From: Hermatobates lingyangjiaoensis
Lineage: Eukaryota > Arthropoda > Insecta > Hemiptera > Hermatobatidae
Direction of reading: 5' to 3'
Assembly (NCBI GenBank): GCA_026182355.1
Contig: JAPFBL010000119.1
Coordinates: 392,501-456,500 of the forward strand
DNA: 64,000 nt
The notes under the pieces were generated by a model. It was given only the letters and a program-made list of their open reading frames with translations, was not told the DNA's origin and did no database searches. Below, piece by piece: positions 316 through 58,317 of this stretch; the first letter of the stretch is position 1; each line of letters opens with the position of its first letter. Position numbers and translations under genes: made by a program.

Positions 316-516
316 ATAATCAATGATCAAACCACAATAAGAAATGGGAAAACAAGACTAAGTTCTAAGAGTTGTGTTTTTGACTCTGACGAAGACCGCT
401 TGTTACGGTTGAAAGATCTTAGTCTTGTTTTCCCATTTCTTATTGTGCTTTGATCATTGATTGTTATTTCACGTGTTTATGTGAAATCTTTATATATATA
501 TATATATATATATATA
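316..516. repeat. Family A PLE-derived foldback with (TA)n cap
   Basis: The left arm (about 316-355, ATCAATGATCAAACCACAAT...) is the reverse complement of the right arm (about 420-465), with a ribozyme-like motif in the right arm. The right end runs through TTTCACGTGTTTATGTGAAAT, itself a small inverted repeat, into (TA)n at 490-516. The same terminal sequence recurs at 2.7, 14.3, 15.1, 18.7, 42.7 and 53.9 kb. Confidence 0.8.
382..424 (+). ncRNA. Hammerhead-like motif, family A
   Basis: Order: stem I GACT, CTGACGA, stem II (AGACCG with CGGTT, one bulged G), GAA, self-complementary AGATCT as stem III, T as residue 17, then AGTC pairing with the leading GACT. All core residues of a hammerhead are present. 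Hammerheads of this short-stem-III type are known in PLE terminal repeats. Activity is inferred only. Confidence 0.65.
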
Positions 517-1159
517 CTAAACTTAACCTGCACAACTTCTCTTTACCTAATATTCTTACTTAAGCTAAAGTTATTGGTTTACGTTGCATGATACAAGGAA
601 GCAAGGATCACATAGAGTATGTAAGTAACTCTATTTTGACTTTTTTCATCATTGCGTTTTACTTAATGTGTCACATATAATAATTTAGAAATGTGATATA
701 CAGGGATGACCCTATATGCCAACAGCTTAGGTTAATCATATTAGTAGGCAGATTATTCTATATACATGCAAGTAACAAATTTTTCAAATGGTTCTTTCTC
801 AATAATCAGCGAGCCCTATTAATTTGGGACCAATGGCATCCATAACTTGTCTTCCATTCAAGTAGCAACCACGTCAAATATTGATTAACTTTTACCAAAT
901 AATAATTGGTATAAGTTAACTTGATATAAAATCATTAAATTTCATTAAGCAGGGGACCATTTTTTCAAGTATATTTTTAATTAATTCCCTGAAGGTAAAA
1001 GGATTACAAAGTTTCAGGGTTATGTTTGATTAAAAAAAATTTATTTTATTAAATGAGTCTAAATTAAGTAGTTATTTACTGAAATCTTAATAAAAAGCCA
1101 GTGTTTATTCTGTTGATAAAATTAAAACTAAGTTTTAATCCAGAGCATAATTAACTACC

Positions 1160-1340
1160 TGTATAATATAAAGCGATTACATTGGCTGGAATATTGGGAG
1201 GCTTTAGTGGAAGATTACCCATCTCGGTTAGGATGGTAATACCTAAGGGTGAACTGTTTATAGCCCTATAGGATCCAAGATGCAGGAATAGCGGGCTTTA
1301 GCCCAAGTAAATCCTCTAGCCATTTCACAGCTTGCCTTTA
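1160..1340. other. Less AT-rich unassigned segment
   Basis: This stretch is noticeably richer in G and C than its surroundings and holds a small hairpin (GGGCT-TT-AGCCC at 1293-1304). It has no open reading frame of note. It could be part of a dispersed repeat, but no second copy was seen here. The rest of 520-1670 shows nothing I can assign. Confidence 0.3.
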
Positions 1341-1678
1341 AAAACCTAATAACCATTCCCATTAGATGGGATTCCTATTTGTTCCTTAATACCAAACCAT
1401 GAAATTTCATTTGTTCCCTTAATTACTTCTTCAAGGAATTAACTCCGTAATTATTATGCATCTCTCTCAAAAGGTGTCAAATCACTTATTGAACCTTGTT
1501 TAAAAAGAGATCAGATGAAACTGATGAATGTTATAGTAATAATATTTAATAACATATTTCTTTCTACCACAGAAACTTACAGAATTTTTGAAATACTACT
1601 GAAACTACTAAGAGTTACCAAAAAAGTATATTAGATTTATTTACTTTAAAAGTTGGAAGCAGTTCTTCATTTAAACAT

Positions 1679-1912
1679 ATATTGTTAAATAACGCCCCAT
1701 ATTTGGCTTGTATCTGTTTCTTACACAATTTCTCCAATTTCCAGAATTCCTTCCTAGTATATGGTGGACTTTTACATTATTTGTCGACTAGGAATGTCGG
1801 TCATAAGCTTTATAGTTTTAATGAAGAGACAAGGAAGGAATTTCAGAAATTGAGGACATTATGTAAGAAACAGATACAAGCCAAATATGGAGCGTTATTT
1901 AACAATATACAT
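1679..1912. repeat. Foldback derived from a PLE-like ORF N-terminus
   Basis: Arms 1679-1758 and 1829-1912 are inverted copies (TTAAATAACGCCCCATATTT against AAATATGGAGCGTTATTTAA, with further matching through the TTTCTTACA/TGTAAGAAA segment). The right arm reads EFQKLRTLCKKQIQAKYGAL then FNNI. That spacing of KL, KK, A and FNNI matches the N-terminal-like reading in the family E element at 4.1-4.3 kb. I infer a foldback of the start of a PLE ORF, without a visible ribozyme motif. Confidence 0.5.
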
Positions 1913-2239
1913 TTATATACTAAACTAATGTATAAGAAATACATATTACACATAACAGTATGAAAACTAAGAGTACTAAGCAAAAAATCAATTTTCAGAA
2001 TTCAGAATTTTATAATTCAATATTAAAAAATAATAACTATATTAAGTTGATAAAATTACTAATTATGACAACTGATTGGCATTAAAAACAAAGCAACAAT
2101 TAAGTACAACAGATAATAGTCTTCACAATGGGACTTTTTCAAAGCAGTTTATAATGATAATTATATAATAATATTATAGAATTATGTAGTTCTTGATGTA
2201 ATGTCTACAACATCTAATTTATAATCCATCATCAGGAAA

Positions 2240-2370
2240 TTATAACATACATTTATAAGAAAATCATAAATACATTGAAACCAAGTTAAGAACTAATTTC
2301 CTCTACTGTTTTCTATTTGCTTATAAGACTAGGAAATAGTTGATGACCGTAGAAGAGTCGAATAAAATAG
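2240..2370 (+). repeat. Dispersed repeat, copy 1 (pair with 5440-5590)
   Basis: AGAAAATCATAAATACATTG, the TATTTGCTTATAA..ACTAGGAAAT segment and TGATGACC.TAGAA.AGTCGAATA are shared with 5440-5590. The last part looks like a decayed ribozyme motif (GAAA changed to GAAT), so this may be the end of a further PLE family. Confidence 0.55.
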
Positions 2371-2719
2371 AGACTCTCCCGTCAAGAATTTAAGTTAATT
2401 TATATATATATATGACAAATAGCTATGTGCTTTTTCATTAAAAGTCCTTGAAAACAATTAAAGGGACCTTCAATCATTTTTAAAAAACATTTAGGTATCA
2501 ATGATTTGGGAATAACTTGCTCTGAGAGGCAATCATTAAGAAACTTTAATTTTAGTTTAGTAATATAGTAACATAGTAGCATAGTAACAAGCACATAGCT
2601 ATTTGTCGTAAAGAAGTAAAGCAAGCTTTTGCAGATTCTTCTTTTAAGAAGAGAGATATGGATATATATATATATATATATATATATGATCAAACCACAA
2701 TAAGAAAATGGGAAAGCAA

Positions 2720-2762
2720 GACTAAGATCTTTCAACCGTAACAAGCGGTCTTCGTCAGAGTC
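2720..2762 (-). ncRNA. Hammerhead-like motif, family A, left arm
   Basis: On the minus strand: GACT, CTGACGA, stem II, GAA, AGATCT, T, AGTC. It is identical in core to the copy at 382-424. It is transcribed away from the foldback centre, towards the left (TA)n cap. Confidence 0.65.
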
Positions 2763-2792
2763 AAGAACCCAACTGAGTTGGGTTACGTTTGG

Positions 2793-2835
2793 GACTCTGA
2801 CGAAGACTGCTTGTTACGGTTGAAAGATCTTAGTC
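2793..2835 (+). ncRNA. Hammerhead-like motif, family A, right arm
   Basis: Mirror of 2720-2762: GACT, CTGACGA, stem II (one base differs, AGACTG for AGACCG, leaving a G-G or shifted pair), GAA, AGATCT, T, AGTC. The change in only one arm shows the arms mutate independently. Confidence 0.65.
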
Positions 2836-2929
2836 TTGCTTTCCCATTTTCTTATTGTGGTTTGATCATTGATTGTTATTTCATGTGTTTATGTGAAATC
2901 TTTATATATATATATATATATATATATGT

Positions 2930-3076
2930 GTTATTAAAATAAGCAGCAGCTTCTGCATTGACCAGTTTCTTGTTGACACTCTCTAGTTTTCGTATCACTC
3001 TGCGGTGAGACTCTGGTAGCTTCCAAAGAAGGTTAGCAAAAGACATTAATACACACATTAAACATAGGTCAAACAC
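2930..3076 (-). pseudogene. PLE-like ORF N-terminal fragment, left arm of family E
   Basis: Reads SFANLLWKLPESHRRVIRKL, then ESVNKKLVNAEAAAYFNN, on the minus strand. The basic, helical character and the FNN segment resemble N-terminal regions of PLE reverse transcriptase ORFs; this is an inference from general family character. It is cut off by (TA)n. It mirrors 4108-4292. Confidence 0.45.
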
Positions 3077-3135
3077 GAAAAACTAAATTTAATCACTGTT
3101 TTAATCACTAAATTAACAAACTAAATAAAATTACG

Positions 3136-3171
3136 TACAAGCTTTCGGCTCTCATTCGCCATCTTCAGGTA
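3136..3171 (-). ncRNA. Hammerhead-like motif, family E, left arm
   Basis: Minus strand: TAC, CTGAAGA, extra T, stem II GGC/GCC with loop GAATGAGA, GAA, AGCT as self-complementary stem III, T, then GTA pairing with TAC. It lies between the ORF end (3342) and the N-terminal fragment (3076). Confidence 0.65.
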
Positions 3172-4012: not shown

Positions 4013-4048
4013 TACCTGAAGATGGCGAATGAGAGCCGAAAGCTTGTA
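4013..4048 (+). ncRNA. Hammerhead-like motif, family E, right arm
   Basis: TAC, CTGAAGA, extra T, GGC...GCC, GAA, AGCT, T, GTA. All core positions are intact, and stems I, II and III are each paired with bases different from those in family A. Confidence 0.7.
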
Positions 4049-14158: not shown

Positions 14159-14285
14159 ACATAAAGAAACATAGAGAAATCAAAAATACACACTAACAGT
14201 CTCTAATTTTCGGTTGAAACGTCTTCAGGAGAGATAAGAGAGGGAAACCAAGCGCACTGGTACAGAGACGGTTAGAGACACTCCT

Positions 14286-14332: not shown

Positions 14333-14506
14333 GATTTCACATAAACACGTGAAATAACAATCAATGATCAAACCACAATAAGAAAATGGAAAAACAAGAC
14401 TAAGATCTTTCAACCGTAACAAGCGGTCTTCGTCAGAGTCAAAAACCCAACTGCAAATACTTGCTCTTAGTCTTGTTTTCTCATTTTCTTATTGTGGTTT
14501 GATCAT

Positions 14507-15465: not shown

Positions 15466-15510
15466 ACTTTTCAATATTTCGACCGTAATGGCGGTCGTCC
15501 TCAGGAGAAG
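15466..15510 (-). ncRNA. Hammerhead-like motif, family B
   Basis: Minus strand: stem I CTTCTC, CTGAGGA, extra C, GACCG/CGGTC stem II with loop CCATTA, GAA, ATAT stem III, T, then GAAAAG. Stem I pairs CT with GA and TTC with AAG around one mismatch. Confidence 0.7.
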
Positions 15511-15744: not shown

Positions 15745-16075
15745 CTAACGATTTAAATTCAAGCCAGGTTTCGAGCGTGCCCCCAGGAGCCAAATGTGGG
15801 CTTCCTCAGAAGCTTTTAAAGTAACTTGTCTGTTATCACTGGGGACTTGTTTAAGAACTTGGACTGTGAAACAATCATTGAAGCTGAGGTGGTGGGAATT
15901 AGCGTGAGTGGCGACAGGGAGACTGCTGCGTTTACCAACCGAAAGCCTGTGATTATTCATCCGAAGGTTCAGCATCGTAGATGCTAAACCAACGTAAAAA
16001 GGATCACATTGGGTGCATTTCAAGAGGTAAACACAGTCAGTGGAGATACAGGAGGAAGGACTGTGAATAGGGTAA

Positions 16076-16078
<3 letters not shown>
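15745..16078 (-). pseudogene. PLE GIY-YIG endonuclease, partial
   Basis: About 110 codons on the minus strand read SSCISTDCVYLLKCTQCDPF then YVGLASTMLNLRMNNHRLSV, through HANSHHLSFNDCF and ending LKASEEAHIWLLGARSK...LNLNR. The VY...YVG pair and the R..NNHR segment are the GIY-YIG signature region in PLEs, whose nuclease nicks DNA for target-primed reverse transcription. The upstream cysteine motif and the reverse transcriptase are missing. No frameshift is seen inside this stretch, so the insertion may be fairly young. Confidence 0.8.

Positions 16079-16125
<47 letters not shown>
16079..16125. repeat. (TA)n microsatellite joining two PLE units
   Basis: About 23 TA units between the truncated end of the family B element and the family C foldback. 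Confidence 0.95.
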
Positions 16126-16129
<4 letters not shown>

Positions 16130-16340
16130 TAATTTTTGTTTAGGCTTCAGGTCTAACGATTTGAAACTATCCTTTTACCAACGTTTCGACATATATTTAT
16201 GTCATCTTCAACAAGAATGTTGTAGCCCTGAAGATGGCATAAATATATGTCGAAATGTCGGCTAAAAGACTAGTTCCATTCGTTAGACCTCAATCCTCAA
16301 AAAAAAATACATCATATAAATATTGGGTCAAGAAAACAGA
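16126..16340. repeat. Family C PLE-derived foldback
   Basis: Left arm TGATGTAATTTTTGTTTAGG..., right arm ending CATCATATAAATATTGGGTC. The loop is only about 20 nt. The right arm has a nearly intact motif; the left has lost C3 (TCTTCAA for TCTTCAG). Confidence 0.85.
16225..16262 (+). ncRNA. Hammerhead-like motif, family C
   Basis: GCC, CTGAAGA, extra T, GGCATA/TATGTC stem II (one G-T wobble), GAA, ATGT (mutated from ACGT), C, GGC. G12 is intact here, unlike at 6.8 kb. Confidence 0.6.
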
Positions 16341-19099: not shown

Positions 19100-19486
19100 T
19101 TATTCCACTTATTTTTACACTAACTTGTTTGTTATCTAATACTTGCTATTAATTTATAATTACACTTAACTACTTAAAAACGATATATTTCGGCCCTTCA
19201 AAAGACCATCATCAGGTTTATGTTTTTCAATATAAACTAATACTAACGCACGGAGATAATTATACTAGGGTGGTAACACGATAACGCGTTTAAAGTTTAC
19301 ATTTCACTGAGGGTTTTTGGAGGGTGGCTAGTGGCATCTCTGGTGGAGGGATATCCAGGTACTCGGTCACTGCACTCTGCTTCTCTTGGCTGGAAGTGTG
19401 TTCTGCCTAAATTGTATTCATTTCTTTTTTCGGCTGTGGGTGGTTGAGCATTTACAAAAAGTTTTAGCTTTTATATATATATATAT
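19100..19486 (-). mobile_element. PLE 3' end, family K, solo
   Basis: On the minus strand, from the (TA)n at 19474-19486: a possible short ORF tail (QSAVTEYLDIPPPEMPLATL, then QKPSVKCKL and stop), an untranslated part, the motif at 19219-19178, and an AT-rich tail. Order and (TA)n boundary match the other PLE ends; the ORF tail itself is not diagnostic. Confidence 0.5.
19178..19219 (-). ncRNA. Hammerhead-like motif, family K
   Basis: Minus strand: AAAC, CTGATGA, extra T, GGTC/GGCC stem II that can extend to seven pairs with wobbles, GAA, ATATAT stem III, C, GTTT pairing with AAAC. Every core position is intact. Confidence 0.7.
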
Positions 19487-25569: not shown

Positions 25570-26722
25570 GAGATGACTAGAATGATTAAAACAATTTTTA
25601 CACTAAAGAAACCGATATGGGAAGGGATAAACAATTCCTCTAATTAATTTATTCATTGAATGAATTACGGTTACAACATTTTGTTGATTATGGAGAATAT
25701 TCAATAGGGTTGATTATTTAGAACAAATTCGGAATGTATGATGATTCTGAATAACTGTAATCAATAAGGAGAAAGAAATGGCTCCATTATCATATCTTTA
25801 AATCATATGATCTGTTAAATAAACTGGCCAATTATAAGATTAGTCAAGAAACCTGAACTAATAAACTATGAAATGTACAACTCTCATTAAAACCTATTAT
25901 TAATCAAATCATTAAACGATTCTAAAGAAATTGGTCTTAGTATCTTATGAATGATCAAAGCGTGAACTACAGTTTAGATAGCTAATGACATAGAAAATTG
26001 TTTTATTTTAGCATACATTTGAGTGATATTTAAAAAAAAACAAGATAAAAGGTCCAAATTATTATAAATAATTATAATTTGATTGTTTAGTTTTTTTATT
26101 AATGATTTCAATTGATACTCAGTAATTCTTTCATATCTTAATTAAGAAAAGAAGGTTACTTTTAACAAATTTTATATACAAAAATGTATTGATATAATTA
26201 AAGTAATGAAATACAATAAATCGCTATCAGCAACTTTGTAATTTTTTTTGTATTTCATTACACTATAAAATAATTAATACTTATTGAACTTTTTATAATG
26301 AACGACTGAAATAAAACACAAGCCTAATCCATAATTTCACCTCTCTAAGATAACCAGAAGGGAGAGAAATAAATAATTGATTAATGTAAATTGCAATAAA
26401 TTGTCCCAAATAACATTTAGAGTAATATTCAAAGGGAAATATATTTTAACCTTCAATATATCCAAAGGAGACCTAAAAAAAAATTTCCATTCTAGTCACT
26501 ATAAAAATTTTCAATTTTGTATTGAATAATAATTTCTAGGATAATTCTTAATAAGGATTTACTAAATTTAGGATAGTGAAAGAGAAAATATTACATAGGA
26601 CAACTTTAATAATAAGTTTCATAATATTAAATTTGACAGCAAACCACTCGAGATTATTTTATTAATATGTTATTGTTAATATAAATGTTAAATGCATTCA
26701 ATAATGACAGACATAATCTTTG
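25570..26722 (-). repeat. Repeat Y, left inverted copy
   Basis: Noncoding, about 1.15 kb. It is the reverse complement of 32627-33607 over its length, with small indels; shared blocks include ATTTCACCTCTCTAAGATAA, GGAGACCTAAAAAAAAATTT and ACAGCAAACCACTC. Confidence 0.8.
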
Positions 26723-26979
26723 TTCACAAATTTAATTTGATTCAACAAAAGAAGATGTTCTTTAAACGTTCTAAAGCAGAAAAATAGATAAGAATAACTC
26801 AGCAATACTATTTTAATTATTGATTGTCAATAATTTTTAATTATTTTTTTAGGTCCTTAAAGCTAGAATCATAAACTTATTTTAACATCCCACATTTTTG
26901 TATGTCTAGGTGATACACCAATAGATTGAATTTTGAATAGAAATCACAAACAAAATTATGACTGCATTATCTATTTTAT

Positions 26980-27230
26980 TTGTTTACCACATCTTTCAAT
27001 GAATCAAATTTTAAAATGCATTCACAATATTTTTTTTCAACTCTCATTCTTTATGTTCTGCGGTATTCACGCTCTTCAATAAGTGGGCAGTTTTTCTTTC
27101 TTGAAAGTGATTATTTATTACTTAGCACCATTTTTATTTTACAGGAGTCCAGTTCACTTAACCAAGATTATTTTACACTAAAGATGCTAAACTTTGCTCC
27201 ATTCAAGAGCAGTAAGAGAAGAGTTCTTTA
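26980..27230 (+). other. Open frame without recognisable domain
   Basis: An 83-codon frame with Ser/Phe/Leu-rich composition expected of AT-rich noncoding DNA. I do not support it as a gene. Nothing else is seen in 26750-27370. Confidence 0.15.
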
Positions 27231-27378
27231 AGAAGTACCTGACATTGTAGGGGCTTGTGACCTGCTTCTTCCCCTCTCATAATTACTTCTATCTTCTTCT
27301 TTTCTTTTATTCGACTTTCTAAGATTTAAATAGAAAATAAATTCAATTTTTTACGAATTAATAGCTGTTTTACAATTT

Positions 27379-27869: not shown

Positions 27870-27879
27870 ATTATTATTC

Positions 27880-28900: not shown

Positions 28901-28911
28901 TGTTTACATTT

Positions 28912-31762: not shown

Positions 31763-31769
31763 ATTTTTT

Positions 31770-32620
31770 TTTTATTATATTAATATTTATGTATTAATTA
31801 TGTTTCAAAATTGATGCATTTTTATTACTAAACATTACTTACGTATAGTAATAGTATCAGAAATACAATGACTGCATAGTGGCGCCGCCATAGCAACACG
31901 GCTATTCCTAGAACTACACTCCTATTGTTCAATTTAGTTAATTTAACTGCCGCTTCAATTCCAGTACATTAAGAGAATGGATGACTTATTGTGAATTGTA
32001 TAGGTAATTAGAATTGTGAGTAAATGCAAATTTATTTTCTTTTTTTCTGAGGTTCTATAGGCTTCTGAAATATTATATATTTTCCTCTTTGCTACTGTTC
32101 ATTTCTGTATACCGATATGATACATTTCAAATAAAAGTCAATGTCTAAACCACAGTAAGAAATTAAAAAAATGGAACAAAGATTCCCCATTCTATTTAAT
32201 TACTTTACTCTTAAACTTATATAAGGTTATATAAATGACATTGGCTAATAAGATCAAGAGCATATTAATAATCTTTGTAGAATCTAATTCGTAAAGTACT
32301 ATCGCACATTATATAAAATTAATACTCATTACTTGTGGGTTAATATGTCATTACGTGAAATGATAGTACAAACTTATATTAACGTATATCAATTTTAAAT
32401 ATCTAAGAATGTCTTGACAATAGATAAGGAATTCCTTTATTATATTATAACCTCACCTATTGGTCAGGTTATTGATGAATCGTATCCTTAGCAAGAAACA
32501 TTTCATTTCATCTCATTAATCAGGTTAGTTTTAAAAAGTATCTTTGGTGAAGAAAAAAGCTGCATAAATTTCATTTAAAACAGTATATAAAAGAATGACA
32601 AACTATACCACCAATTAAGT
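31770..32620. other. Mostly unassigned; short GC-richer island
   Basis: 31870-31930 (AGTGGCGCCGCCATAGCAAC) stands out in GC from its surroundings but has no supported function. 32125-32165 is a fragment of the diverged family A repeat. Confidence 0.35.
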
Positions 32621-32626
32621 TTGTTA

Positions 32627-33607
32627 ATAAAGATCATGTCTGTCATTGTTGGTTGTATTTAACGATATAGAGACAATAATACATTAATAAAATAATCTTG
32701 AGTGGTTTGCTGTCAAATTTAATATTATGAAACTTATTATTAATGTTGTCCCGTGTAATATTTTCTCTTTCACTATCCTAAATTTAGTAAATCCTTATTA
32801 TGAATTATCCTAGAAATTATTATTCAATACAAAATTGAAAATTTTTATAGTGACTAGAATGGAAATTTTTTTTTAGGTCTCCTTTGGATATATTGAAGGT
32901 TAAAATATATTTCCCTTTGAATATTACTCTAAATGTTATTTGCGACAATTTATTGCAATTTGCATTAATCAATTATTTATTTCTCTCCCTTCTGGTTATC
33001 TTAGAGAGGTGAAATTATGGATTTAGGCTTGTGTTTTATTTCAGTCGTTCATTATAAAAAGTTCAATAAGTATTAATTATCTTATAGTGTAATGTAATAC
33101 AAAAAACAATTACAAAGTTGCTGATAGCGATTTATTGTATTACATTACTTTATTTATATCAATAAATTTTTATATATAAAATTTGTTAAAAGTAAACTTC
33201 TTTTCTTAATCTTAATGAATCAATTAATGAGTTATTAACCTAAATATAATTATTTATAATAATTTGGAACTTTTTAATTAATTTTTTTTTAAATCTCTCT
33301 CATATATAAGCTGAAATAAATCAAATTTTCAATGTCAATAGCTATCTAAACTGTAGTTCACGCATTGATCATTCATAAGAAACTAAGACCAATTTCTTTA
33401 GTAACGTTTAATGATTTGATTAATAATAGGTTTCAATGGGAGATACATTCCTAATTTGTTTTAAATAATCAATCCTATTGAATATTCTCCATAAGCAACA
33501 AAATGTTGTATCCGTACCTCAATGAATGAATTAATTAAAAGAATTGTTCATTCCATCTCATATAGGGTTCTTTAGTGTAAAAATTGTTTTAAACATTCTA
33601 GTATTTA
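32627..33607 (+). repeat. Repeat Y, right inverted copy
   Basis: Reverse-complement partner of 25570-26722, lying about 6 kb away, with repeat X copy 1 and the 82-bp array in between. No coding potential. Confidence 0.8.
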
Positions 33608-33609
33608 AG

Positions 33610-34230
33610 AAAAATAAAAATAAATAATGTTTTAACACTATTTAAATCCAGGTGAATAATAGAATAAATATTTGTAGAATAATAATAAATATATATGTCG
33701 TATTTATTAGTGTCTTATATGAGTGTATACAAACTCTGAATTATGAGTCAAACATTGGCTAACATTAGTGGTCAGTACTTTTACATAGCTGCTATACACA
33801 TAATGTAGTGTAAACGCCCATGACTCACAGCTCTAATACAGTTTGAGGTATGTTATAATCTTGTGGTTATTTTTAGTTAAATAATGATATAAATAACATA
33901 ATTAAAGACTTATAGAAAGAAACAGGCAAATTGTATTTAATTAACTTTTATTTGACTACTTAAGTTGTAGAAAGTTTTTTATCATAAGTTTTTATAATAA
34001 GAATATGAATCAGTTACTGATTAACAATTTAAATCATTAATACTTCACCTTCTAATACATAAGACATAAGAAACAAATAAAGATAGGTTACTTAGTATTA
34101 AAAAATACATGGTTATGATAAGGGAAATGCGAATAAAATTAGATAAATATGGTAAATAATTTGTTAAATTCTGGTGAAGAATCAAGTAATTAAAACAAAA
34201 TTAGAAAAGGTTTTTAGAAAAATAGTGTTT
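33610..34230. other. No assignable feature
   Basis: AT-rich DNA between the two inverted-partner blocks; shorter than the corresponding left interval (24.05-25.56 kb). Confidence 0.35.
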
Positions 34231-34234
34231 TTTT

Positions 34235-34420
34235 TAATATTTAGGATGGCATTTGAATTTCATTGATGTCAAAATGAATTATATTTTTAAAAACTGAATT
34301 TACTTGCAATAGTTTAATAATGAATGTCGGATACCCAGGGAAGTTATTATTTTACTTTAAAATATTCCCCGTGACCACAGATACGAGTATATGGTTATGT
34401 ACTTAGAAGTCAGTATCCTA
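34235..34420 (-). repeat. Inverted partner of 23840-24040
   Basis: AAAAACTGAATTTACTTGCA, ATATTCCCCGTGACCACAGA and ATGGTTATGTACTT are reverse complements of blocks at 23.85-24.0 kb. Confidence 0.7.
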
Positions 34421-34434
34421 TCCTCACTTTAGTT

Positions 34435-34654
34435 AGTGAAATTATTATATGCATCAGTGGAGTGATATACAAAAGTAAGCATATATATTGATAAGTGAAT
34501 CAATCACTATCTGTACTACCTACAGGAATGAAAGACTAATAAACATCATCCACTTAGACATTCATATGATACTTAAATAGAACATTATAAATTATATACC
34601 CAATATATATGACATTATGGTTACTTATAGTAAAGTTGAGTGTAGGCCACTACA
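34435..34654 (+). repeat. Repeat X, 3'-end fragment abutting a full copy
   Basis: Matches the last 220 bp of copy 1 (ATATATTGATAAGT.GATCAA through GTTACTTATAGTAAAGTTGA and GGCCACTACAG) and is joined directly to the start of copy 2. Confidence 0.8.
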
Positions 34655-36392
34655 GATTTTTACTTTACTATAAGTAAAGTATAGTGATCGTGAAAAAATT
34701 CGATCTCGTGATTTTGACCGAATTACATGTTTTGAGGTCCCTGAAGTCGTTTTATGAAGTTTCTCGATGATGTCTGTGTGTGTGTGGGTGGGTGGGTGAG
34801 TGTGTTAGCATTGCTTGTTACCACGCTACGGTCCAGAATCTTTGATAGATCAAGTTGATATTTTACACAAAAATGGGCTGTGTTCAAACAGAAGATCCCT
34901 ACTGTTTGGGAAGAATTTTGCATGACGGGAAAGTCACTTTTTTTTTACCAAAAACCGTTTTTTAAAACACTTTTTTTCTCCTAAACTGATAAACCTTTGG
35001 TTTTGAAATTTTGGCATTATTTTTCAGGTTACAAATCAAACAAACAAAAAATATATTTAGAATTTTAAAACAACGGGAAATATTTTTTTTCAATAAAATG
35101 TACAAATTTTGACTTATAATTCAATCTCAAAGTTTGTGAGAGGGATACAAGACATACCGTTTGACGGATCAAAATGAAACTATGTTTAAAAATAGAACAT
35201 TATATGGAAAATTATTTGAAATAATTTTTTTTTAAATTACACTCACCAAAGGGGCGTTAAAGTACGATTTCTGTTTTCAGAAAATGTTTTTTTGACGCTA
35301 AACGACTCATTAAAAACTCATGAAAATTTGACCATAAATGGAAAAAAAATTAGTAATTCATAAAAAACATTCATTTAGTTTCAATTACCGGAAAGAGCAA
35401 TAAAGTTATAAAAACTGTTTGTTTATCCTAGACTAAGGGATCACCTGCTATCTTGTCAAATTATTGATAATTTTTTACGATGTTTATATTGACTTAGAAA
35501 TTTTTCGAGCAAAAACAGTGAGATAAAATTAGACTATTCTAGTCTAATAGTTCATATTTATTATTTTCAAAAATTAGAAGCTCCCAACTATAAATGAATT
35601 AAATTATATTGAATAGCTGGCTTCGACTTTGATTTGAGTATGTAAACTGGTTAATTACTGATATATTTTTGCCCAATATACATTCATAGCAAGCTTATAA
35701 CAGAGTACAAGACGCAGGAAAAAAGATAACACTCACTCAGAGAAAATTGGTATATATGATTTTCGACAAAGAGGAAGGAAAATGATTTTAATAAATACTA
35801 AGAAGCCATAAAATTCCCAGTATAATAATTTTATAAAAAACCAAAACTGTAAAACATAATTCAAAATGGAAATCTTTCGTTTGAAGATTAATAAATGTAA
35901 TTATTGTATATCCTTAATTATAAATTACCTTAACACACGACATTTTTTCTTGGATGTTTATGATGTTTTCAGAGAAAATAAGAGTAATTTTCTGATTTAA
36001 ATTTGAAAATTTGACTTAAATATTCAATATAGAAGGAGGTCAAGTAACCGATATAAGAAATCCACTGGCTATTTGAACAAACGCCATGTTCTCTTGTAGG
36101 AGATTATTTCGTATCAAGAAATGTTCACTTTGGCTTTTCAAAAATGTTACTACTGCTGTAGTTATACCAATGAGATTATATGGATCAGCCGTGGGATGTA
36201 CAAAAATTAAGCTTATATATTGATAAGTCGATCAATCACTATCTGTACTACCTCAGAAATGAAAGACTAATAAGCATCTCCCATTTAAATGTTTACATTA
36301 TGTTTAAATGAGACATTATATATTATACACCCAAGAACATTGATATTAAGTTTACTTATAGTCATGCTGAGTGTAGGCCACTCCAGATTTTA
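34655..36392 (+). repeat. Repeat X, copy 2 (about 1.7 kb)
   Basis: Starts at hairpin ACTTTACTATAAGTAAAGT (34662-34680) and ends with GAGTGTAGGCCACTCCAGAT. It is colinear with copy 1 but lacks the internal duplication. No coding potential. Confidence 0.85.
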
Positions 36393-36399
36393 TTTATTA

Positions 36400-40688: not shown

Positions 40689-40996
40689 AAAAACTAAAGT
40701 TTATCGGAACTTGGTCAGTTCATCATGTTCAAATTAAACTCTCATTGCCAACGTTTCGGTCTTTATTTAAAACCTTTTTCATTGGCAGAAGTATAAATTT
40801 TGAAACAGAAAAACTAAGCATTACATTACAAATTATTTTACAAAGAAAATAATTTGTAATGTAATGCTTAGTTTTTCTGTTTCAAAATTTATACTTCTGC
40901 CAATGAAAAAGGTTTTAAATAAAGACTGAAACGTTGGCAATGAGAGTTTAATTTGAACCTGAAGAACTGACCGAGTCCCGACAAACTTTAGTTTTG
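40689..40996. repeat. Family G PLE-derived foldback
   Basis: The arms meet near 40842 (ACAAATTATTTT / AAAATAATTTGT). Read outward, each arm gives CCAATGAAAAAGGTTTTAAA, TAAAGAC, GAAACG, TTGGCAATGAGAGTTTAATT, TGAACCTGAAGAACTGACCG. A hammerhead-like stem II and GAAACGT are kept but the CTGANGA box reads CAATGAA or CTATGAA throughout the family. Confidence 0.85.
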
Positions 40997-40999
40997 TTT

Positions 41000-41410
41000 C
41001 TATTTCACGGTGAATACTTCTATCAATATATATAAATATATATATTTGGCTAAAGAAATGTTGTAAAAAAGGCCCCAGGATGAAGCAATCTTGTAAATTC
41101 TCTGCATGAGGGATCTGATAGCAAAGTCTTTATACTGTTTCGTGTATTCACTCTTAACATTAGTTACGATGCTGAAATAAATATAAATATGTATATAATA
41201 AATTGAATAATACGATTTCACGAACTAAGAAACTCAACAAAAAATAGTACCTTAAGTTTAATAGTTGTCATCTATTCCATTTAAGGAAGACCATACCGAG
41301 ATCCCTGTCAAGTCTTCATCAAATTGGTAGCAATTTAAATAATCGTTGATTCCAAATTGAACAATAAAAAAAATGTTGGTATTCTTCTAACTTTACTGTT
41401 AATCATATAG
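41000..41410. other. No assignable feature
   Basis: AT-rich DNA between PLE fragments; TA-rich runs at 41026-41047. Confidence 0.35.
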
Positions 41411-42178: not shown

Positions 42179-42540
42179 CCAAAATTAAAGTTTATCAGAA
42201 CTCGGTCAATTCTTCTGGTTCAAATTAAACTCTCACTGCCAAAGTTTCGACTTTTAATGAAAACCTTTTTTTATAAATATAGGCAAAACTATAACATTTT
42301 TTGAAAAAAAAACTCACTATTACTTTAGAAATTATTTAACAAAGAAAAACGGTTTCTGAAATGTACAAACTGTTGTTTTCTCTGTAAAATAATCTCTAAT
42401 GTAATGGTTAATTTTTCTGTTTCAAAAATTGTATACTTCTGTCTATGAAAAAGGTTTCCAATAAAAACCAAAATGTTGGCAATGAGAGTTTATTTTCAAC
42501 CTGAAGATCTGACTGAGTCCTGATAAATTTTTTTTTTGTA
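42179..42540. repeat. Family G PLE-derived foldback, diverged
   Basis: Outer arm sequences AAAGTTTATCAGAACTCGGT and CTGACTGAGTCCTGATAAAT mirror each other; inner parts keep TTGGCAATGAGAGTTTA and GAAAAAGGTTT. A short (TA)n follows at 42540-42552. Confidence 0.8.
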
Positions 42541-42734
42541 TATATATATATAATAAAATCGTTAGCTTTAGCTTATATACGGCTTTAGCTAAAAATTAAA
42601 ACTAAAGTAACACAATGGTAATATACATATTAACATATATGGATATATTGCGGTAACAATCAGGTCATTTAACAGATCATATATTAATGAGGATTGATCC
42701 CCAAATATACAAATATATGTATATACATATAATA

Positions 42735-42960: not shown

Positions 42961-42998
42961 CACATCGATATTTCGACAATCGTCGTCATCAGGAGGTG
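42961..42998 (-). ncRNA. Hammerhead-like motif, family H, left arm
   Basis: Minus strand: CACCTC, CTGATGA, extra C, GAC/GTC stem II with loop GATT, GAA, ATAT stem III, C, GATGTG. Stem I pairs CT with GA and CAC with GTG, split by a C-T mismatch. Confidence 0.7.
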
Positions 42999-43279
42999 CG
43001 AAGAGCGAAGAGTCCCGCAGGAAGTCAGGGCGGTACTGAACTCGGAAACCGCAGCCAGTACCCCACCAATTACCACCAAGCAGGGGAAGGGAGGGAAGGA
43101 AATGAAGAGCCAAATTAAGACGTAAAAGGAACGAGTAAAAATTATAACTATAAAAAATTATAAAAAAGTAGATAAATCAAATTAAAATTAATAAAAATAA
43201 TAAATAAAAAGTAAAATAAAAAATAATAAATAAATAAATAAATAAAAAATAATAAATAAATAAATAAATCATAAATAAA

Positions 43280-43925
43280 TTATCGGTTGAGGTTGAGTCC
43301 GGGGAAGAGCGAGCATCAAGTAAGCATATGTATGCCTCCTCTGAAGCTCTTAGGGTAACTTTATTGTTGGATTCGGGGATCTGTTTCAGGATCTGAACCC
43401 TGAAACAGTCATTGAAACTGAGTCCATGCGAGTTCGCATGGATGGCTACAGGATAGTTACTGCGTTGACCGACTGAAGCCCTATGACCATTCATACGAAG
43501 GCTCAACTTATTAGAAGTTAAGCCAACGTAAAAGGAGTCACACTGAGTGCAATCCAGTCGGTAAACACAGTTGCTCGAGGTACAGGAGGAATTGACCTGA
43601 ACCGGGTAGGAACTATGGTGGAGAGGGGAATCGAAGGAAGGATTAGGATTTACAATCAGGCAAGTTTGACAGCCACGGCGTCCACATTGTTTCATTCCAG
43701 GAACAGGATTGGAAGGCTGAGGGGAAATATGAGAGAAAATGCTTTTTAGATTGGCAGGTTTACGGTAGGAAATAGAAGGGGGGTGATTAAAGATGGAAGA
43801 AGTAGAAGTAGACAGAATCGGAAAAGACTCCTTAATAACAGCACGAAGCTTATAAGCGCCAGGGAAGTAGGTTGTCAGGAAGAAGGAAGTGTTACTTCTA
43901 TCCCTCTTGGGTCTGGGTTGGTGGG
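43280..43925 (-). pseudogene. PLE GIY-YIG endonuclease, left arm, frameshifted near its end
   Basis: Same protein as the right arm (see 43960-44612), from RRKCYFYPSWVWVGG-adjacent sequence at the centre to LLDARSS. The run of C that reads five in the right arm is four here, so the last codons shift to SPDSTSTDN and the reading runs on into the untranslated region. One copy of a repeated Thr-Ser pair is also missing (STSTSSIF for STSTSTSSIF). Confidence 0.75.
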
Positions 43926-43959
43926 AGATGTCAGCCGGTAAAACACGAACCCAGTAAAA

Positions 43960-44612
43960 CCCACCAACCCAGACCCAAGAGGGATAGAAGTAACACTTCC
44001 TTCTTCCTGACAACCTACTTCCCTGGCGCTTATAAGCTTCGTGCTGTTATTAAGGAGTCTTTTCCGATTCTGTCTACTTCTACTTCTACTTCTTCCATCT
44101 TTAATCACCCCCCTTCTATTTCCTACCGTAAACCTGCCAATCTAAAAAGCATTTTCTCTCATATTTCCCCTCAGCCTTCCAATCCTGTTCCTGGAATGAA
44201 ACAATGTGGACGCCGTGGCTGTCAAACTTGCCTGATTGTAAATCCTAATCCTTCCTTCGATTCCCCTCTCCACCATAGTTCCTACCCGGTTCAGGTCAAT
44301 TCCTCCTGTACCTCGAGCAACTGTGTTTACCGACTGGATTGCACTCAGTGTGACTCCTTTTACGTTGGCTTAACTTCTAATAAGTTGAGCCTTCGTATGA
44401 ATGGTCATAGGGCTTCAGTCGGTCAACGCAGTAACTATCCTGTAGCCATCCATGCGAACTCGCATGGACTCAGTTTCAATGACTGTTTCAGGGTTCAGAT
44501 CCTGAAACAGATCCCCGAATCCAACAATAAAGTTACCCTAAGAGCTTCAGAGGAGGCATACATATGCTTACTTGATGCTCGCTCTTCCCCCGGACTCAAC
44601 CTCAACCGATAA
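43960..44612 (+). pseudogene. PLE cysteine motif and GIY-YIG endonuclease, right arm
   Basis: This is the best-preserved PLE endonuclease here, open for about 215 codons. Order: KLRAVIKESFPILS, RKPANLKSIFSHIS, a cysteine cluster CGRRGCQTC that in PLEs precedes the nuclease, then NCVYRLDCTQCDSFYVGLTS as the GIY-YIG core, LSLRMNGHRASVGQR, VAIHANSHGLSFNDCF and TLRASEEAYICLLDARSS, ending LNLNR and TAA. PLE endonucleases nick target DNA to prime reverse transcription. The reverse transcriptase is absent, so it is a 5'-truncated copy. A stop-free frame and near-identity to the left arm suggest recent origin. Confidence 0.85.
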
Positions 44613-44895: not shown

Positions 44896-44933
44896 CACCT
44901 CCTGATGACGACGATTGTCGAAATATCGATGTG
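44896..44933 (+). ncRNA. Hammerhead-like motif, family H, right arm
   Basis: CACCTC, CTGATGA, extra C, GAC/GTC with loop GATT, GAA, ATAT, C, GATGTG. It is identical to the left-arm motif. It lies 284 nt after the endonuclease stop and about 50 nt before the (TA)n cap at 44980-44991. Confidence 0.7.
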
Positions 44934-44999
44934 AGTTATGTCTGTGTCTTTCTGTGTGTTTCCTTCGTTTTTTATTTTATTATATATATATATTTGTAT

Positions 45000-52887: not shown

Positions 52888-52925
52888 GTCCTGAAGATGA
52901 TTAATGATCATTTGAAACATGTCGA
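52888..52925 (+). ncRNA. Hammerhead-like motif, orphan
   Basis: GTC, CTGAAGA, TGAT/ATCA stem with three extra T after it, GAA, ACATGT self-complementary, C, GAC pairing with GTC. Stem II is offset, so probably a decayed copy; stem III matches that of family I. Confidence 0.45.
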
Positions 52926-53104
52926 CTATAGAAGATATGCTTTACTGTGTAGACAAAGTAATGAGAGAAAAATTGTTTATTTAGGAAAATTGCAATGCTT
53001 GTTAAGAAATAGTTATCAGCTAATTTTGGTGTTATTTTAAATATATATATAAATATATATATAAACACTAATAACTTCTCGACCGTGTGACAGATATACA
53101 ACTA

Positions 53105-53829: not shown

Positions 53830-53960
53830 TAAAAAGATTTCACATAAACACGTGAAATAACAATCAATGATCAAAAAACAATAAGAAAATGGGAAACAAG
53901 ACTAAGATCTTTCAACCGTAACAAGCGGTCTTCGTCAGAGTCAAAAACCCAACTGAGTTT
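53830..53960 (-). repeat. Family A end, single arm
   Basis: TTTCACATAAACACGTGAAA, TAACAATCAATGATCAAA and the motif, ending AAAAACCCAACTGAG; no facing arm is present. Confidence 0.8.
53900..53942 (-). ncRNA. Hammerhead-like motif, family A
   Basis: Minus strand GACT, CTGACGA, AGACCG/CGGTT, GAA, AGATCT, T, AGTC, all intact. Confidence 0.65.
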
Positions 53961-55124: not shown

Positions 55125-55327
55125 TATACCTTTCTCTGAAAATATACCAGAAATGACTAAGACCTTTCAACCAAAACAAGTGGTCTTCGTCAGAGCGCCA
55201 CTGGTGGTCTCATGAAAACCACTTGTTTTGGTTTGATGACGAAAGTCATTTTTCTGATTTGCTACTGTGACTTAGACGCTGATTTTTATTTCACGAGTCA
55301 ATTGTAAAATGTTATATATATATATAT
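55125..55327. repeat. Family A-related foldback, diverged subfamily
   Basis: Left arm with motif, right arm AAACCACTTGTTTTGGTTTG without an intact core, then TTTTTATTTCACGAGTCAAT and (TA)n at 55318-55327. Confidence 0.7.
55155..55196 (-). ncRNA. Hammerhead-like motif, family A variant
   Basis: Minus strand CTGACGA, AGACCA/TGGTT stem II (changed on both sides relative to AGACCG/CGGTT), GAA, AGGTCT (self-complementary with a G-T pair), T, AGTC. Stem I keeps two to three pairs. Confidence 0.55.
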
Positions 55328-55359: not shown

Positions 55360-55571
55360 GTTACTGAAGTCCACAGACTGTTTTCTTTGTAAAGCAATCT
55401 CTAATGTAATACTTAGTTACATGTTTCAAAATGTTATACTTCTGCCTATGAAAAAGGTTTAAAAAAAAAACGAAACTTTGTCAATGAGAGTTCAATTTGA
55501 ACCTGAAGAACTGACTGAGTCCTGATAAACTTTTATTTTGTTTCTACTTCACGGTCGATACTTTTATCAAC

Positions 55572-55574
<3 letters not shown>
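55360..55574 (+). repeat. Family G PLE end, single arm
   Basis: CCTATGAAAAAGGTTTA, GAAACTTTGTCAATGAGAG, AACCTGAAGAACTGACTGAG, then the tail TTTCTACTTCACGGTCGATA and (TA)n. Confidence 0.8.

Positions 55575-55619
<45 letters not shown>
55575..55619. repeat. (TA)n microsatellite
   Basis: About 22 TA units joining a family G end to a family H end. Confidence 0.95.
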
Positions 55620-55621
<2 letters not shown>

Positions 55622-55757
55622 CAATAAAATAAAAAACGAAGGAAACACACAGAAAGACACAGACATAACTCACATCGATATTTCGACAATCGTCGTCATC
55701 AGGAGGTGCGAAGAACGAAGAGCGAAGAGTCCCGCAGGAAGACAGGGCGGTACTCAT
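55620..55757 (-). repeat. Family H PLE end, single truncated arm
   Basis: Nearly identical to 42900-43035 (GAAGGAAACACACAGAAAGA, CACAGACATAACTCACATCG), broken off at GGGCGGTACT where (TA)n resumes. GAGCGAAGA is duplicated relative to the 43 kb copy. Confidence 0.85.
55671..55708 (-). ncRNA. Hammerhead-like motif, family H
   Basis: Identical in core and stems to the motif at 42961-42998. Confidence 0.7.
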
Positions 55758-56599: not shown

Positions 56600-56824
56600 T
56601 TCAGTGTCACGTGTTCATTCAGACTACAGTTGTTGTTCAAATCCACATACTATTTTTCTTTGTAAGATAATTTGTAATGTAATACTTAGTTTTTCTGTTT
56701 CAAAATTTATACTTCTGCCAATGAAAAAGGTTTTAAATAAAGACCTAAACGTTGGAAATGAGAGTTAATTTGAACCTGAAGAACTGACTGTGTCACGATA
56801 AAATTTAGTTTTGTATATATATAT
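56600..56824 (+). repeat. Family G PLE end, single arm
   Basis: TTCTGCCAATGAAAAAGGTT, TTAAATAAAGACCTAAACG, ATGAGAG and CTGAAGAACTGACTGTG, ending at TA repeats (56815-56824). Confidence 0.8.
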
Positions 56825-56892: not shown

Positions 56893-56928
56893 GCTCTGAC
56901 GCCTTTCGTTTTCACGTCGTCAGAGAGC
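56893..56928 (-). ncRNA. Hammerhead-like motif, family M
   Basis: Minus strand: GCTCT, CTGACGA, extra C, GT/AC stem II closed by a GAAA tetraloop, GAA, AGGCGT (one change from AGGCCT), C, AGAGC pairing with GCTCT over five bases. Confidence 0.65.
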
Positions 56929-56959
56929 AAGTGAATACAAGTTGTAGGCAGGTTATGAA

Positions 56960-57090
56960 TTTTGATTTAATGTTGGATTAAGATTGGCATCATTGACAGT
57001 ATTTTTTCCTATTACAGTCGAAATAGTCTTGATTTGTTTAACGATTCCTTTAATTAGAAATTCATCTAATTTAAACACTAGTCCAGGCCT
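56960..57090 (-). pseudogene. PLE ORF C-terminus, family M
   Basis: About 43 codons read RPGLVFKLDEFLIKGIVKQI then KTISTVIGKNTVNDANLNPT, LNQNS and stop. It matches the end of the 52.2 kb fragment. Only the tail of the endonuclease module is present. Confidence 0.65.
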
Positions 57091-57092
57091 TT

Positions 57093-57124
<32 letters not shown>

Positions 57125-57168
57125 GAAAACAAACCACAAGGAAAAAAAAGAAAACAGATAGAAAAAAT

Positions 57169-57203
57169 GCTCTGAGGCCTTTCAATTTATGTCATCAGAG
57201 AGC
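57169..57203 (-). ncRNA. Hammerhead-like motif, family M, left arm
   Basis: Minus strand: GCTCT, CTGATGA, extra C, weak stem II (ATAAATT), GAA, AGGCCT fully self-complementary, C, AGAGC pairing with GCTCT. Only stem II is doubtful. Confidence 0.6.
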
Positions 57204-57883
57204 AAACAAGGTAAGAACTAGAAGGTAACATCAAAGGTGTGTACAAGGAAGGTAACTAAACAGCTGGGAAACCAAAAGTCGAAGAGGCATAATAAGAGAA
57301 AAAACAAAAAATACCCAATACAATTAAACAATGCAAAATGAACAATAAGAAAATTAATTAAATTAAAAAAAATAAAAATATAAATAGAATAAGAAACAAG
57401 TGTTATATATAATTCCTAACTATAAACAATATATAATAAATATAAACAAATAGATACAAATTAAATTAATGCAATATCAAAAAATAAACAATAATAAATG
57501 ATTAACAAAACAAGAATACATGAGAAAGTAAATAAGTCTCATGTATTCTTGTTTTGTTAATCATTTATTATTGTTTATTTTTTGATATTGCATTAATTTA
57601 ATTTGTATCTATTTGTTATATTTATTATATATTGTTTATATTAGGAATTATATATAACACTTGTTTCGTTAATTCTATTTATATTTTTTTTTTATAATTT
57701 GAATTAATTTTTTATTGTTTCAAATTTATTTGCATTGAAAGTTTTAAATAAGTCAATTGAAGGATTTTTTGTTTTTCTCTATTAATGCCTCTTCGACTAA
57801 TTTGTTTCCAGCTGTTTAGTTACCTTACAAATTGTACAAACACGTTTGATATGTATACCAATTCTAGTTCTTACCTTTGTTTT

Positions 57884-57919
57884 GCTCTCTGATGACATAA
57901 AATTGAAAGGCCGTCAGAG
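57884..57919 (+). ncRNA. Hammerhead-like motif, family M, right arm
   Basis: GCTCT, CTGATGA, extra C, ATAAAATT, GAA, AGGCCGT (one inserted G), C, AGAG. Slightly decayed mirror of 57169-57203. Confidence 0.55.
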
Positions 57920-58015
57920 ATTTTTTCTAATCTGTTATTGCTTTTTTTTTTCCTTGTGAATGTTTGTTTTTACATTGATTGTATCAGAATGTTTATTGTG
58001 ATTCATCTGCATGCA

Positions 58016-58018
<3 letters not shown>

Positions 58019-58056
<38 letters not shown>
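58019..58056. repeat. (TA)n microsatellite
   Basis: About 18 TA units between the family M and family F palindromes. Confidence 0.95.
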
Positions 58057-58060
<4 letters not shown>

Positions 58061-58157
58061 TATTCACTGATAAAACGAAATACGATCCAAACTGGACACA
58101 ATACGAGTTCGAGATTAACAAAGAGCAACACACAAAGTAGGGAAACACACTTACAGA

Positions 58158-58188
58158 CTCAAATTTTCGGGTAATCCGTCTTCAGGAG
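58158..58188 (-). ncRNA. Hammerhead-like motif, family F, left arm
   Basis: Minus strand: CTC, CTGAAGA, extra C, GG/CC stem II with loop ATTAC, GAA, AATT, T, GAG pairing with CTC. Confidence 0.65.
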
Positions 58189-58286
58189 AAAAGAGAATGG
58201 GAGACCAAGCACGTTGTAGGCGCAACGGCAAGAAACCCGTTACTTGCCCTTGCGCCTACAACGTGCTTGGTCTCCCATTCTCTTTT

Positions 58287-58317
58287 CTCCTGAAGACGGA
58301 TTACCCGAAAATTCGAG
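58287..58317 (+). ncRNA. Hammerhead-like motif, family F, right arm
   Basis: CTC, CTGAAGA, extra C, GG/CC, GAA, AATT, C, GAG. Residue 17 is C here and T in the left arm; both are allowed in hammerheads. Confidence 0.65.

What the first reader, a model, noticed from the sequence alone, without database searches (positions are those of the whole stretch)
382..58317. At least eight families of hammerhead-ribozyme-like motif with compensated stems in one window
Families A, B, C, E, F, H, K and M all fit one pattern: stem I strand, CTGANGA, one extra base, stem II, GAA, a self-complementary A...T stretch as stem III, a residue that is never G in the intact copies, then the other stem I strand. The pairs differ by family. 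Stem I: GACT/AGTC (A), TAC/GTA (E), GCC/GGC (C), CTC/GAG (F), AAAC/GTTT (K), GCTCT/AGAGC (M). Stem II: AGACCG/CGGTT, GGC/GCC, GACATA/TATGTC, GG/CC, GGTC/GGCC, GACCG/CGGTC (B), GAC/GTC (H). Stem III: AGATCT, AGCT, ACGT, AATT, ATATAT, AGGCCT, ATAT. Changes that keep pairing in all three helices are strong evidence for a selected RNA fold. Hammerheads in PLE terminal repeats are established at class level; the diversity side by side is what stands out.
Basis: partly seen in the sequence, partly recalled or inferred. Interest (0 to 1): 0.9.

Follow-up and report, generated by a model that had tools for sequence, protein, structure and literature searches.

The report
Hammerhead ribozymes flooding an animal genome
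The window carries many families of tiny RNA motifs of the self-cutting hammerhead kind that belong to Penelope-like jumping genes; the genome holds more than a hundred thousand matches to the motif, nearly all with one extra base in the core, and in some families the motif contains the jumping gene's own start codon or sits right beside a splice-like signal.

Summary
A full type-I hammerhead grammar finds 14 motifs in the window, none in 30 shuffles, and 0-1 for each of 18 one-letter-altered cores. Genome copies not chosen for the tested pairs covary in stems I, II and III. They are the known minimal hammerheads of Penelope-like elements (PLEs), not a new ribozyme class.

Genome-wide, 142,220 pattern matches have it (reversed-pattern control 545), 1,032 have none (control 389), 3,786 fit two (control 407). 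Family A adds 33,667 exact copies. (2) In family N the inserted U makes A9-U-G10.1 the start codon of an 856-aa reverse-transcriptase ORF; a second identical hammerhead core starts 59 nt after its stop. (3) In the extra-C class the 5'-splice-site hexamer GTRAGT lies 3-9 nt after the cleavage position in 11 of 12 loci.

Against a simple processing role: family A 5' ends peak about 53 nt upstream of the cleavage position. Cleavage was not tested. A viroid has a base at the same place. The two founding papers on PLE hammerheads could not be read.

The parts
382..424 (+). Family A hammerhead, intact (GACT/AGTC, extra A, GACCG/CGGTT, AGATCT, T17)
   Evidence: exact 39-mer 16,843 + 16,824 copies in own genome
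2720..2762 (-). Family A, intact; tail-less arm of a divergent pair with 2790-2838
2790..2838 (+). Family A, intact; tailed arm of the pair
14398..14440 (-). Family A, intact; tailed arm
53900..53942 (-). Family A, intact; tailed single copy
55156..55196 (-). Family A variant, stem II GACCA/TGGTT (compensated against GACCG/CGGTT)
3136..3171 (-). Family E hammerhead, intact, in one arm of a long inverted repeat
4013..4048 (+). Family E hammerhead, intact, other arm
16223..16264 (+). Family C hammerhead, intact (TAGCC/GGCTA, GGCATA/TATGTC, ATGT)
19178..19219 (-). Family K hammerhead, intact (AAAC/GTTT, GGTCTT/AGGGCC, ATATAT)
52888..52926 (+). N-like hammerhead (GTC/GAC, stem III ACATGT, stem II only 2 pairs)
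58158..58188 (-). Family F hammerhead, intact; inverted pair with 58287-58317
58287..58317 (+). Family F hammerhead, intact
58321..58326 (+). GTAAGT (5' splice-site hexamer), 6 nt after the family F cleavage position
44896..44933 (+). Family H hammerhead 3' of the 43839-44612 ORF; one C/T mismatch at stem I pair 3
44931..44936 (+). GTGAGT, 3 nt after the family H cleavage position, overlapping the stem I strand
42961..42998 (-). Family H hammerhead, inverted partner copy
55671..55708 (-). Family H hammerhead copy near (TA)n
15467..15510 (-). Family B hammerhead 3' of the 15745-16146 ORF; one C/A mismatch at stem I pair 3; GTGAGT 5 nt after the cleavage position
56893..56928 (-). Family M copy, stem III broken (AGGCGT)
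   Evidence: M with all stems in L038 and L044
57169..57203 (-). Family M copy, stem II broken
14200..14232 (-). Family O copy, stem II damaged (GTT for GGT)
43839..44612 (+). 5'-truncated PLE ORF, C-terminal GIY-YIG-like endonuclease
   Evidence: PF01541 at E 0.01, below its cut-off; relative P0002 at 4.6e-4, also below cut-off
43177..44046 (-). Head-to-head inverted copy of the same ORF
15745..16146 (-). PLE endonuclease-like fragment upstream of hammerhead B
   Evidence: motif C..C...YVG...L..R...H; no Pfam match at 0.01
1592..1963 (+). Fragment resembling the N-terminus of the family N PLE ORF; a decayed N-type motif in it is my reading by eye
   Evidence: 38% over 53 aa, E 5e-8 in a single comparison

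Best explanation
These are minimal type-I hammerhead ribozymes of several lineages of Penelope-like retroelements. Where an intact tandem was read (lineage N) the motif sits in the direct repeat between the stop codon of one unit and the coding start of the next; in others (H, B) it lies 3' of truncated PLE ORFs. Stem III is mostly a 4-6 nt palindrome, too short alone, so cleavage probably needs two copies pairing as a double hammerhead, or help from the element's protein. Nearly all matches carry one inserted base (A, C or U) between A9 and stem II. In lineage N the inserted U completes the element's start codon (A9-U-G10.1), so the ribozyme also encodes the first 9 amino acids and cleavage would cut the start codon off the ORF. 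In the extra-C lineages the cleavage position lies a few nucleotides before a 5' splice-site hexamer. Many genomic copies are 5'-truncated head-to-head pairs at AT-rich sites (32 of 49 family A copies) and probably dead. Shown here: anatomy, covariation, match counts, start-codon overlap, GTRAGT adjacency. Inferred: cleavage, dimer action, splicing, and that the ribozyme tunes how much tandem RNA stays translatable rather than defining cDNA ends.
For: Grammar against shuffles and altered cores. Genome matches 142,220 (control 545) with one extra base, 1,032 (389) with none, 3,786 (407) with two. Covariation: stem II pair 2 66/71 (permuted 41.2), pair 3 51/66 (25.4), pair 4 41/45 (23.8), stem III pair 2 62/71 (29.3), all 0/5000; stem I 49/60 (32.2), 0/10000. 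Offset test on 10 families: one extra base 29/30 stem II pairs, none 13/30, two 12/30. One tandem of 2,635-nt offset with hammerheads at both ends and an 856-aa ORF starting at A9-U-G, RVT_1 E 3.3e-12, 2,198 relatives at E<=1e-10 among the 7,992 candidates scored. GTRAGT 11/12 extra-C loci vs background 0.003. 14/16 divergent family A pairs have exactly one tailed arm, as reported for PLEs (PMC3846280 passages, PMC11167929 section).
Against: No cleavage data. Stem I has 3 or more consecutive pairs in 12 of 20 loci, fewer in 8, so many genomic copies may be inactive. Family A 5' ends peak 50-53 nt upstream of the cleavage position (20 of 51); 1 weakly placed copy ends at -4 and 4 had no usable anchor. 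Only 2 of 85 relatives have N-termini that can be written as an overlapping hammerhead, so start-codon overlap is not general. Many extra-U families (C, K, E, several of L027-L038) meet stops soon after the A9-U-G. Splicing is not shown; no acceptor was established. GIY-YIG support for the window ORF is below Pfam's cut-off, and Pfam found none in the 856-aa ORF.
Confidence: 0.85

Rival explanations
1. The motifs are relics: only common ancestry of abundant PLE copies keeps the pattern, and no ribozyme function is maintained at present.
For: Many single copies have broken stems. PAc inserts in vitro without hammerhead cleavage (PMC11167929). Family A 5' ends ignore the cleavage position.
Against: Different families change both sides of stems I, II and III while the core stays fixed; inheritance alone does not compensate pairs. 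Position 17 is 0 G of 43. The one tandem N pair read shares flanks identical over about 356 nt.
Confidence: 0.12
2. The motifs belong to retrozyme-like non-autonomous circular RNA elements rather than PLEs, at least for family A, which has 33,667 exact copies.
For: No ORF was seen in family A copies, which are short and very abundant. Metazoan retrozymes carry type-I hammerheads (PMC7229834 passages).
Against: Family A is not in short tandem arrays here: 16 divergent pairs, 2 convergent and 1 same-strand neighbour pair within 800 nt. It has PLE-type tailed and tail-less ends, mostly at AT-rich sequence, and copies starting upstream of the hammerhead. Families N, H and B are joined to PLE ORFs.
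Confidence: 0.1
3. The extra base is not inserted: it is position 10.1 in a mismatch and stem II is otherwise canonical.
For: A U10.1-U11.1 mismatch is reported in natural hammerheads (PMC3088659 section 8).
Against: Without the one-base offset, stem II pairs fall from 29/30 to 13/30. The motif with G10.1 directly after A9 is under 1% as frequent.
Confidence: 0.03

Closest known systems
Minimal type-I hammerheads of Penelope-like elements (Cervera & de la Pena 2014; Lunse, Weinberg & Breaker 2017; neither could be read, known here through citing passages in PMC7761336, PMC7229834, PMC6466107)
   Same: Minimal type-I layout, little or no stem III, location in PLE pseudo-LTRs, tandem copies, proposed dimer cleavage
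   Different: Here nearly all matches have one extra base after A9; whether those papers report it could not be checked. 175,887 pattern matches in 0.91 Gb (summed; a motif can be counted twice)
PAc hammerhead of the Poseidon PLE in Anolis carolinensis (PMC11167929, main-text section read)
   Same: [quoted passage not shown] Tailed and tail-less copies, AT-rich targets
   Different: It concerns one PLE and calls no base extra; no splice-signal class is described in that section
Plus-strand hammerhead of chrysanthemum chlorotic mottle viroid (PMC3705267 passages; de la Pena & Flores 2001 seen only as a reference)
   Same: One unpaired base directly after conserved A9
   Different: A single viroid with an extra A; here C, U or A in about two dozen motif clusters, and A9-U-G10.1 can be a start codon
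Metazoan retrozymes and their hammerheads (PMC7229834 passages)
   Same: Type-I hammerheads in very high copy number, weak stem III, dimer action
   Different: Those lie in short tandem repeats; here three families are joined to PLE ORFs and family A is mostly in head-to-head pairs

Membership tests
Hammerhead ribozyme, type I | Conserved core CUGANGA ... GAA with A15.1-U16.1 and position 17 not G | tested here: met
   14 and 32 hits; changed cores give 0-2 each; 0 G of 43
Hammerhead ribozyme, type I | Three helices with compensating pairs, open end at stem I | tested here: met
Hammerhead ribozyme, type I | Stem II starts directly after A9 | tested here: not met
   One inserted base: 142,220 vs 1,032 matches. 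A natural exception is known in a viroid (PMC3705267), so this makes it a variant
Hammerhead ribozyme, type I | Self-cleavage after position 17 | not testable with these tools
   Needs transcripts
Hammerhead ribozyme, type I | Match to a curated Rfam hammerhead model | tested here: not met
   window only: none at E up to 1
Penelope-like element | Single ORF with a PLE-type reverse transcriptase | tested here: met
   RVT_1 E 3.3e-12 in the 856-aa ORF; 2,198 relatives at E<=1e-10, nearly all of the 120 listed with PF00078 and PF26215. That the type is PLE rests on my recall of PLE RT/EN motifs and on the element layout
Penelope-like element | C-terminal GIY-YIG endonuclease | tested here: inconclusive
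   PF01541 E 0.01 in the window ORF and 4.6e-4 in relative P0002, both below cut-off; none in the 856-aa ORF; among 120 listed relatives seen for P0074
Penelope-like element | Tandem units with pseudo-LTRs, head-to-head partial copies, optional tail on one arm | tested here: met
   one 2,635-nt tandem, about 356 identical nt; 7 same-strand pairs about 2,630 nt apart; 14 of 16 pairs with one tailed arm
Metazoan retrozyme | Short tandem repeats of 150-450 bp carrying the hammerhead | tested here: not met
   1 same-strand neighbour pair within 800 nt among 49 family A copies; the N unit is coding. Other families not tested

The most novel reading that the evidence does not exclude
The hammerhead is a gate shared with a host machine. 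In lineage N the inserted base turns the catalytic core into the start codon (A9-U-G10.1), so a ribosome initiating there melts the ribozyme, and only RNA that is not being translated cuts its own start codon off. In the extra-C lineages the motif abuts a 5' splice site, so U1 docking and ribozyme folding exclude each other. The inserted base would then be kept because it reconciles the fixed core with these signals, and PLEs would sort their tandem RNA into mRNA, template and self-destroyed RNA by who docks first.
Probability: 0.22. Interest if true: 0.8.

Novelty: new variant of a known kind. Interest (0 to 1): 0.56.

Why it matters
The activity and role of PLE hammerheads are called still a mystery (PMC7761336 passage). 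Here one genome offers about two dozen motif clusters, intact tandem units and a repeated placement rule (start codon in the core, or a 5' splice-site hexamer beside the cut), which makes the question directly testable. The inserted base, described for a viroid as going with weak cleavage (PMC11014351 passage), becomes the rule across many retroelement families, which matters for search models: Rfam found none of those in the window.

Tried and rejected
Scan without an inserted base found 6 family A copies only, with a short wrong stem II; allowing 0-2 bases solved it. Rfam at E<=1 gave 20 matches, none a hammerhead, most of them microRNA models on inverted or simple repeats, none at its gathering score.

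MAFFT alignment A1 of 11 families could not align stems III and I of different length, so pair counts were done in Python; no covariance model was built.

Idea that family A 5' ends mark the cleavage position: rejected (51 anchors, 20 at -53 to -50, 8 at -81 or further up, the rest spread, 1 weak at -4, 4 without a usable upstream match).

Idea that every extra base makes a working start codon: rejected as general. The count for two extra bases was unanswered 11 times and came: 3,786 against 407; many of the 100 listed look like one-base families whose G10.1 has become A or T. Viral-contig scan for PLE relatives: none. PDB search with the 856-aa ORF: none at 0.01. Organism: COX1 has TGA inside the frame and was judged to read best in mitochondrial code 5; 'arthropod-like' is recall, not a test. 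The GIY-YIG protein search of the own genome did not complete.

Papers: PMC11167929 main-text section in full plus passages; PMC3088659 section 8 in full plus passages; passages only of PMC6155905, PMC7229834, PMC10085705, PMC7761336, PMC6466107, PMC8490949, PMC3705267, PMC9608096, PMC11620745, PMC11722881, PMC11014351, PMC3846280. Not held: Cervera 2014, Lunse 2017 (one search used a wrong DOI), Arkhipova 2017, Schostak 2008 and one 2021 paper asked for by a recalled DOI.


Full report
CHECK. The window lies in an unnamed 909.9 Mb assembly. CTGANGAN{3,25}GAAA occurs 35 times against 3.0 expected. With the whole grammar there are 14 motifs, 0 in 30 dinucleotide shuffles, and 0 or 1 for each of 18 altered cores; replacing GAA by nine other triplets gives 2 for CAA and 0 for the rest. 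In L001-L022 (206,078 bases) there are 32, with 0 in one shuffle of each locus and 0-2 per altered core; 3 of the 32 are in L001 and L002, which were fetched for family A, and the other 20 loci are 10-kb stretches at one fixed position in each of 20 contigs. 28 of the 32 fit best with one extra base, 4 with none. Allowing G at position 17, 43 motifs in window + L003-L022 hold no G there.

COVARIATION. Ten family representatives: stem I 28 of 30 pairs (permuted 17.4; 0/5000), stem III pair 2 10 of 10 (4.2; 0/5000), stem II with one inserted base 29 of 30 (24.0; 4/5000), with none 13 of 30 (11.6; 271/5000), with two 12 of 30 (12.4; 3582/5000) (two near-duplicates, H2 and N2, were left out). These were chosen partly for pairing, so less biased tests followed. 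The 100 motifs listed, all on contig C1, were fixed only at the core, the first stem II pair and the ends of stem III. Among their 71 unique sequences stem II pairs 2, 3, 4 are formed in 66/71, 51/66, 41/45 and stem III pair 2 in 62/71, each above all 5,000 permutations; the same holds for 26 clusters (24/26, 19/23, 17/19, 19/26). For stem I, 20 loci taken without regard to it give 49 of 60 pairs against 32.2 permuted, 0/10000. Permutation does not remove relatedness of families, but the pair types differ on both sides.

THE INSERTED BASE. One base then a G...C closing pair: 69,061 + 73,159 matches (reversed-pattern control 313 + 232). G directly after A9: 437 + 595 (control 220 + 169); some of the listed ones look like deletions of known families, and some places are listed more than once. 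Two bases, the second not G: 1,818 + 1,968 (control 258 + 149); many of the 100 listed look like one-base families with G10.1 changed. Variable gaps can count a motif twice, so these are matches, not copies. Family A closes G-U and is outside the first pattern; its exact 39-mer occurs 33,667 times. In the 100 listed motifs the inserted base is C 53, T 35, A 12, G 0. A plant viroid has an unpaired A at this place (PMC3705267 passage).

ELEMENTS. On the motif's strand, PLE-like ORFs lie upstream: window 43839-44612 with H, window 15745-16146 with B, and in L008 an open frame ending about 30 nt before N. L049 shows a tandem: hammerhead, 856-aa ORF, a second identical hammerhead whose core starts 59 nt after the stop, then a tail ending at (TA)n; offset 2,635 nt, about 356 identical nt within the stretch fetched. 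The ORF has RVT_1 at 3.3e-12. Its N-terminal peptide gave 150 matches scored out of 40,947 candidates, the rows listed all 100% identical, 7 of them in open frames of 799-871 aa, and 7 same-strand pairs about 2,630 nt apart. The start codon is A9, inserted U, G10.1. PAc of Anolis has its ORF starting at stem II, C3 and G8 before the start codon and the cut 26 bp downstream (PMC11167929); family N cuts 27 nt counting from A9, so I infer the same architecture there. Of the 120 listed relatives, 85 are 700 aa or longer and start with M; 2 of these 85 can be written as such an overlap (0.3 expected from shuffled peptides). Many of the others begin MSLGxLI-like further in; some starts may be artefacts of fragmentary records. 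The overlap is thus confined to some lineages.

SPLICE SIGNAL. GTRAGT occurs within 0-12 nt after the cleavage position in 11 of 12 extra-C loci (the exception, M in L044, at +26), 2 of 18 extra-U loci (both stem III AGCT, at +0) and 0 of 2 extra-A loci; further downstream in the same loci it occurs once, 0.003 per 13 positions. The 32 loci include more than one copy of H, F, O and of the GAAC family, so they are not 32 independent cases. PLE pseudo-LTRs are reported to hold introns (PMC11722881 passage). Splicing here is inferred.

INSERTION. Of 16 divergent family A pairs (window, L001-L022), 14 have one tailed and one tail-less arm, 2 neither by my criterion. Both the optional tail on one inverted repeat and head-to-head order are described for PLEs (PMC3846280 passages), with two RT start sites and cutting of both strands in vitro (PMC11167929). 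Family A 5' ends peak at -53 to -50 from the cleavage position (20 of 51), so cleavage does not seem to set them.

MECHANISM AND NOVELTY. Best reading: PLE hammerheads, acting as dimers or with protein, that limit translatable tandem RNA. New relative to what I could read: the near-universal inserted base with its genome-wide contrast, its identity with the start codon in lineage N, and GTRAGT beside the cut in the extra-C class. In the listings of seven paper searches in an open-licence library, and in the passages I read, I saw no statement of these, but the two key papers are not held, so priority is open. A coral with 16 families and an axolotl with 126,247 motifs (PMC7229834 passages) show that diversity and abundance as such are known.

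Noticed in passing
window 27378-27868: 82-bp tandem repeat, six copies at 97% matches; no link to the hammerheads was looked for.
   Followed up: no
window 58894-59292 (-): hAT transposase C-terminal dimerisation region, PF05699 E 3e-11.
   Followed up: no
L016 1622 (+): Single family A copy truncated at the core, flanked by about 60 nt of similar AT-rich sequence on both sides, like a long target-site duplication (by eye).
   Followed up: no
G000:C161:900933-918687: Two equally scoring mitochondrial COX1 copies 16.4 kb apart inside a 1.3-Mb contig: a tandem mitogenome in a nuclear contig or a mis-assembly.
   Followed up: partly
G000:C1551:981-2314: A second COX1 without internal stops under the standard reading, in an 11-kb contig: possibly another organism's DNA.
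   Followed up: no
window 40846-41045, 42388-42587, 55391-55589, 56664-56771, 60878-61077: Another dispersed repeat family, also found inverted; not classified.
   Followed up: no
window 26326-36399: A cluster of long direct and inverted repeats (D6, D8, D12, D13, I3) with no match of the pattern.
   Followed up: no
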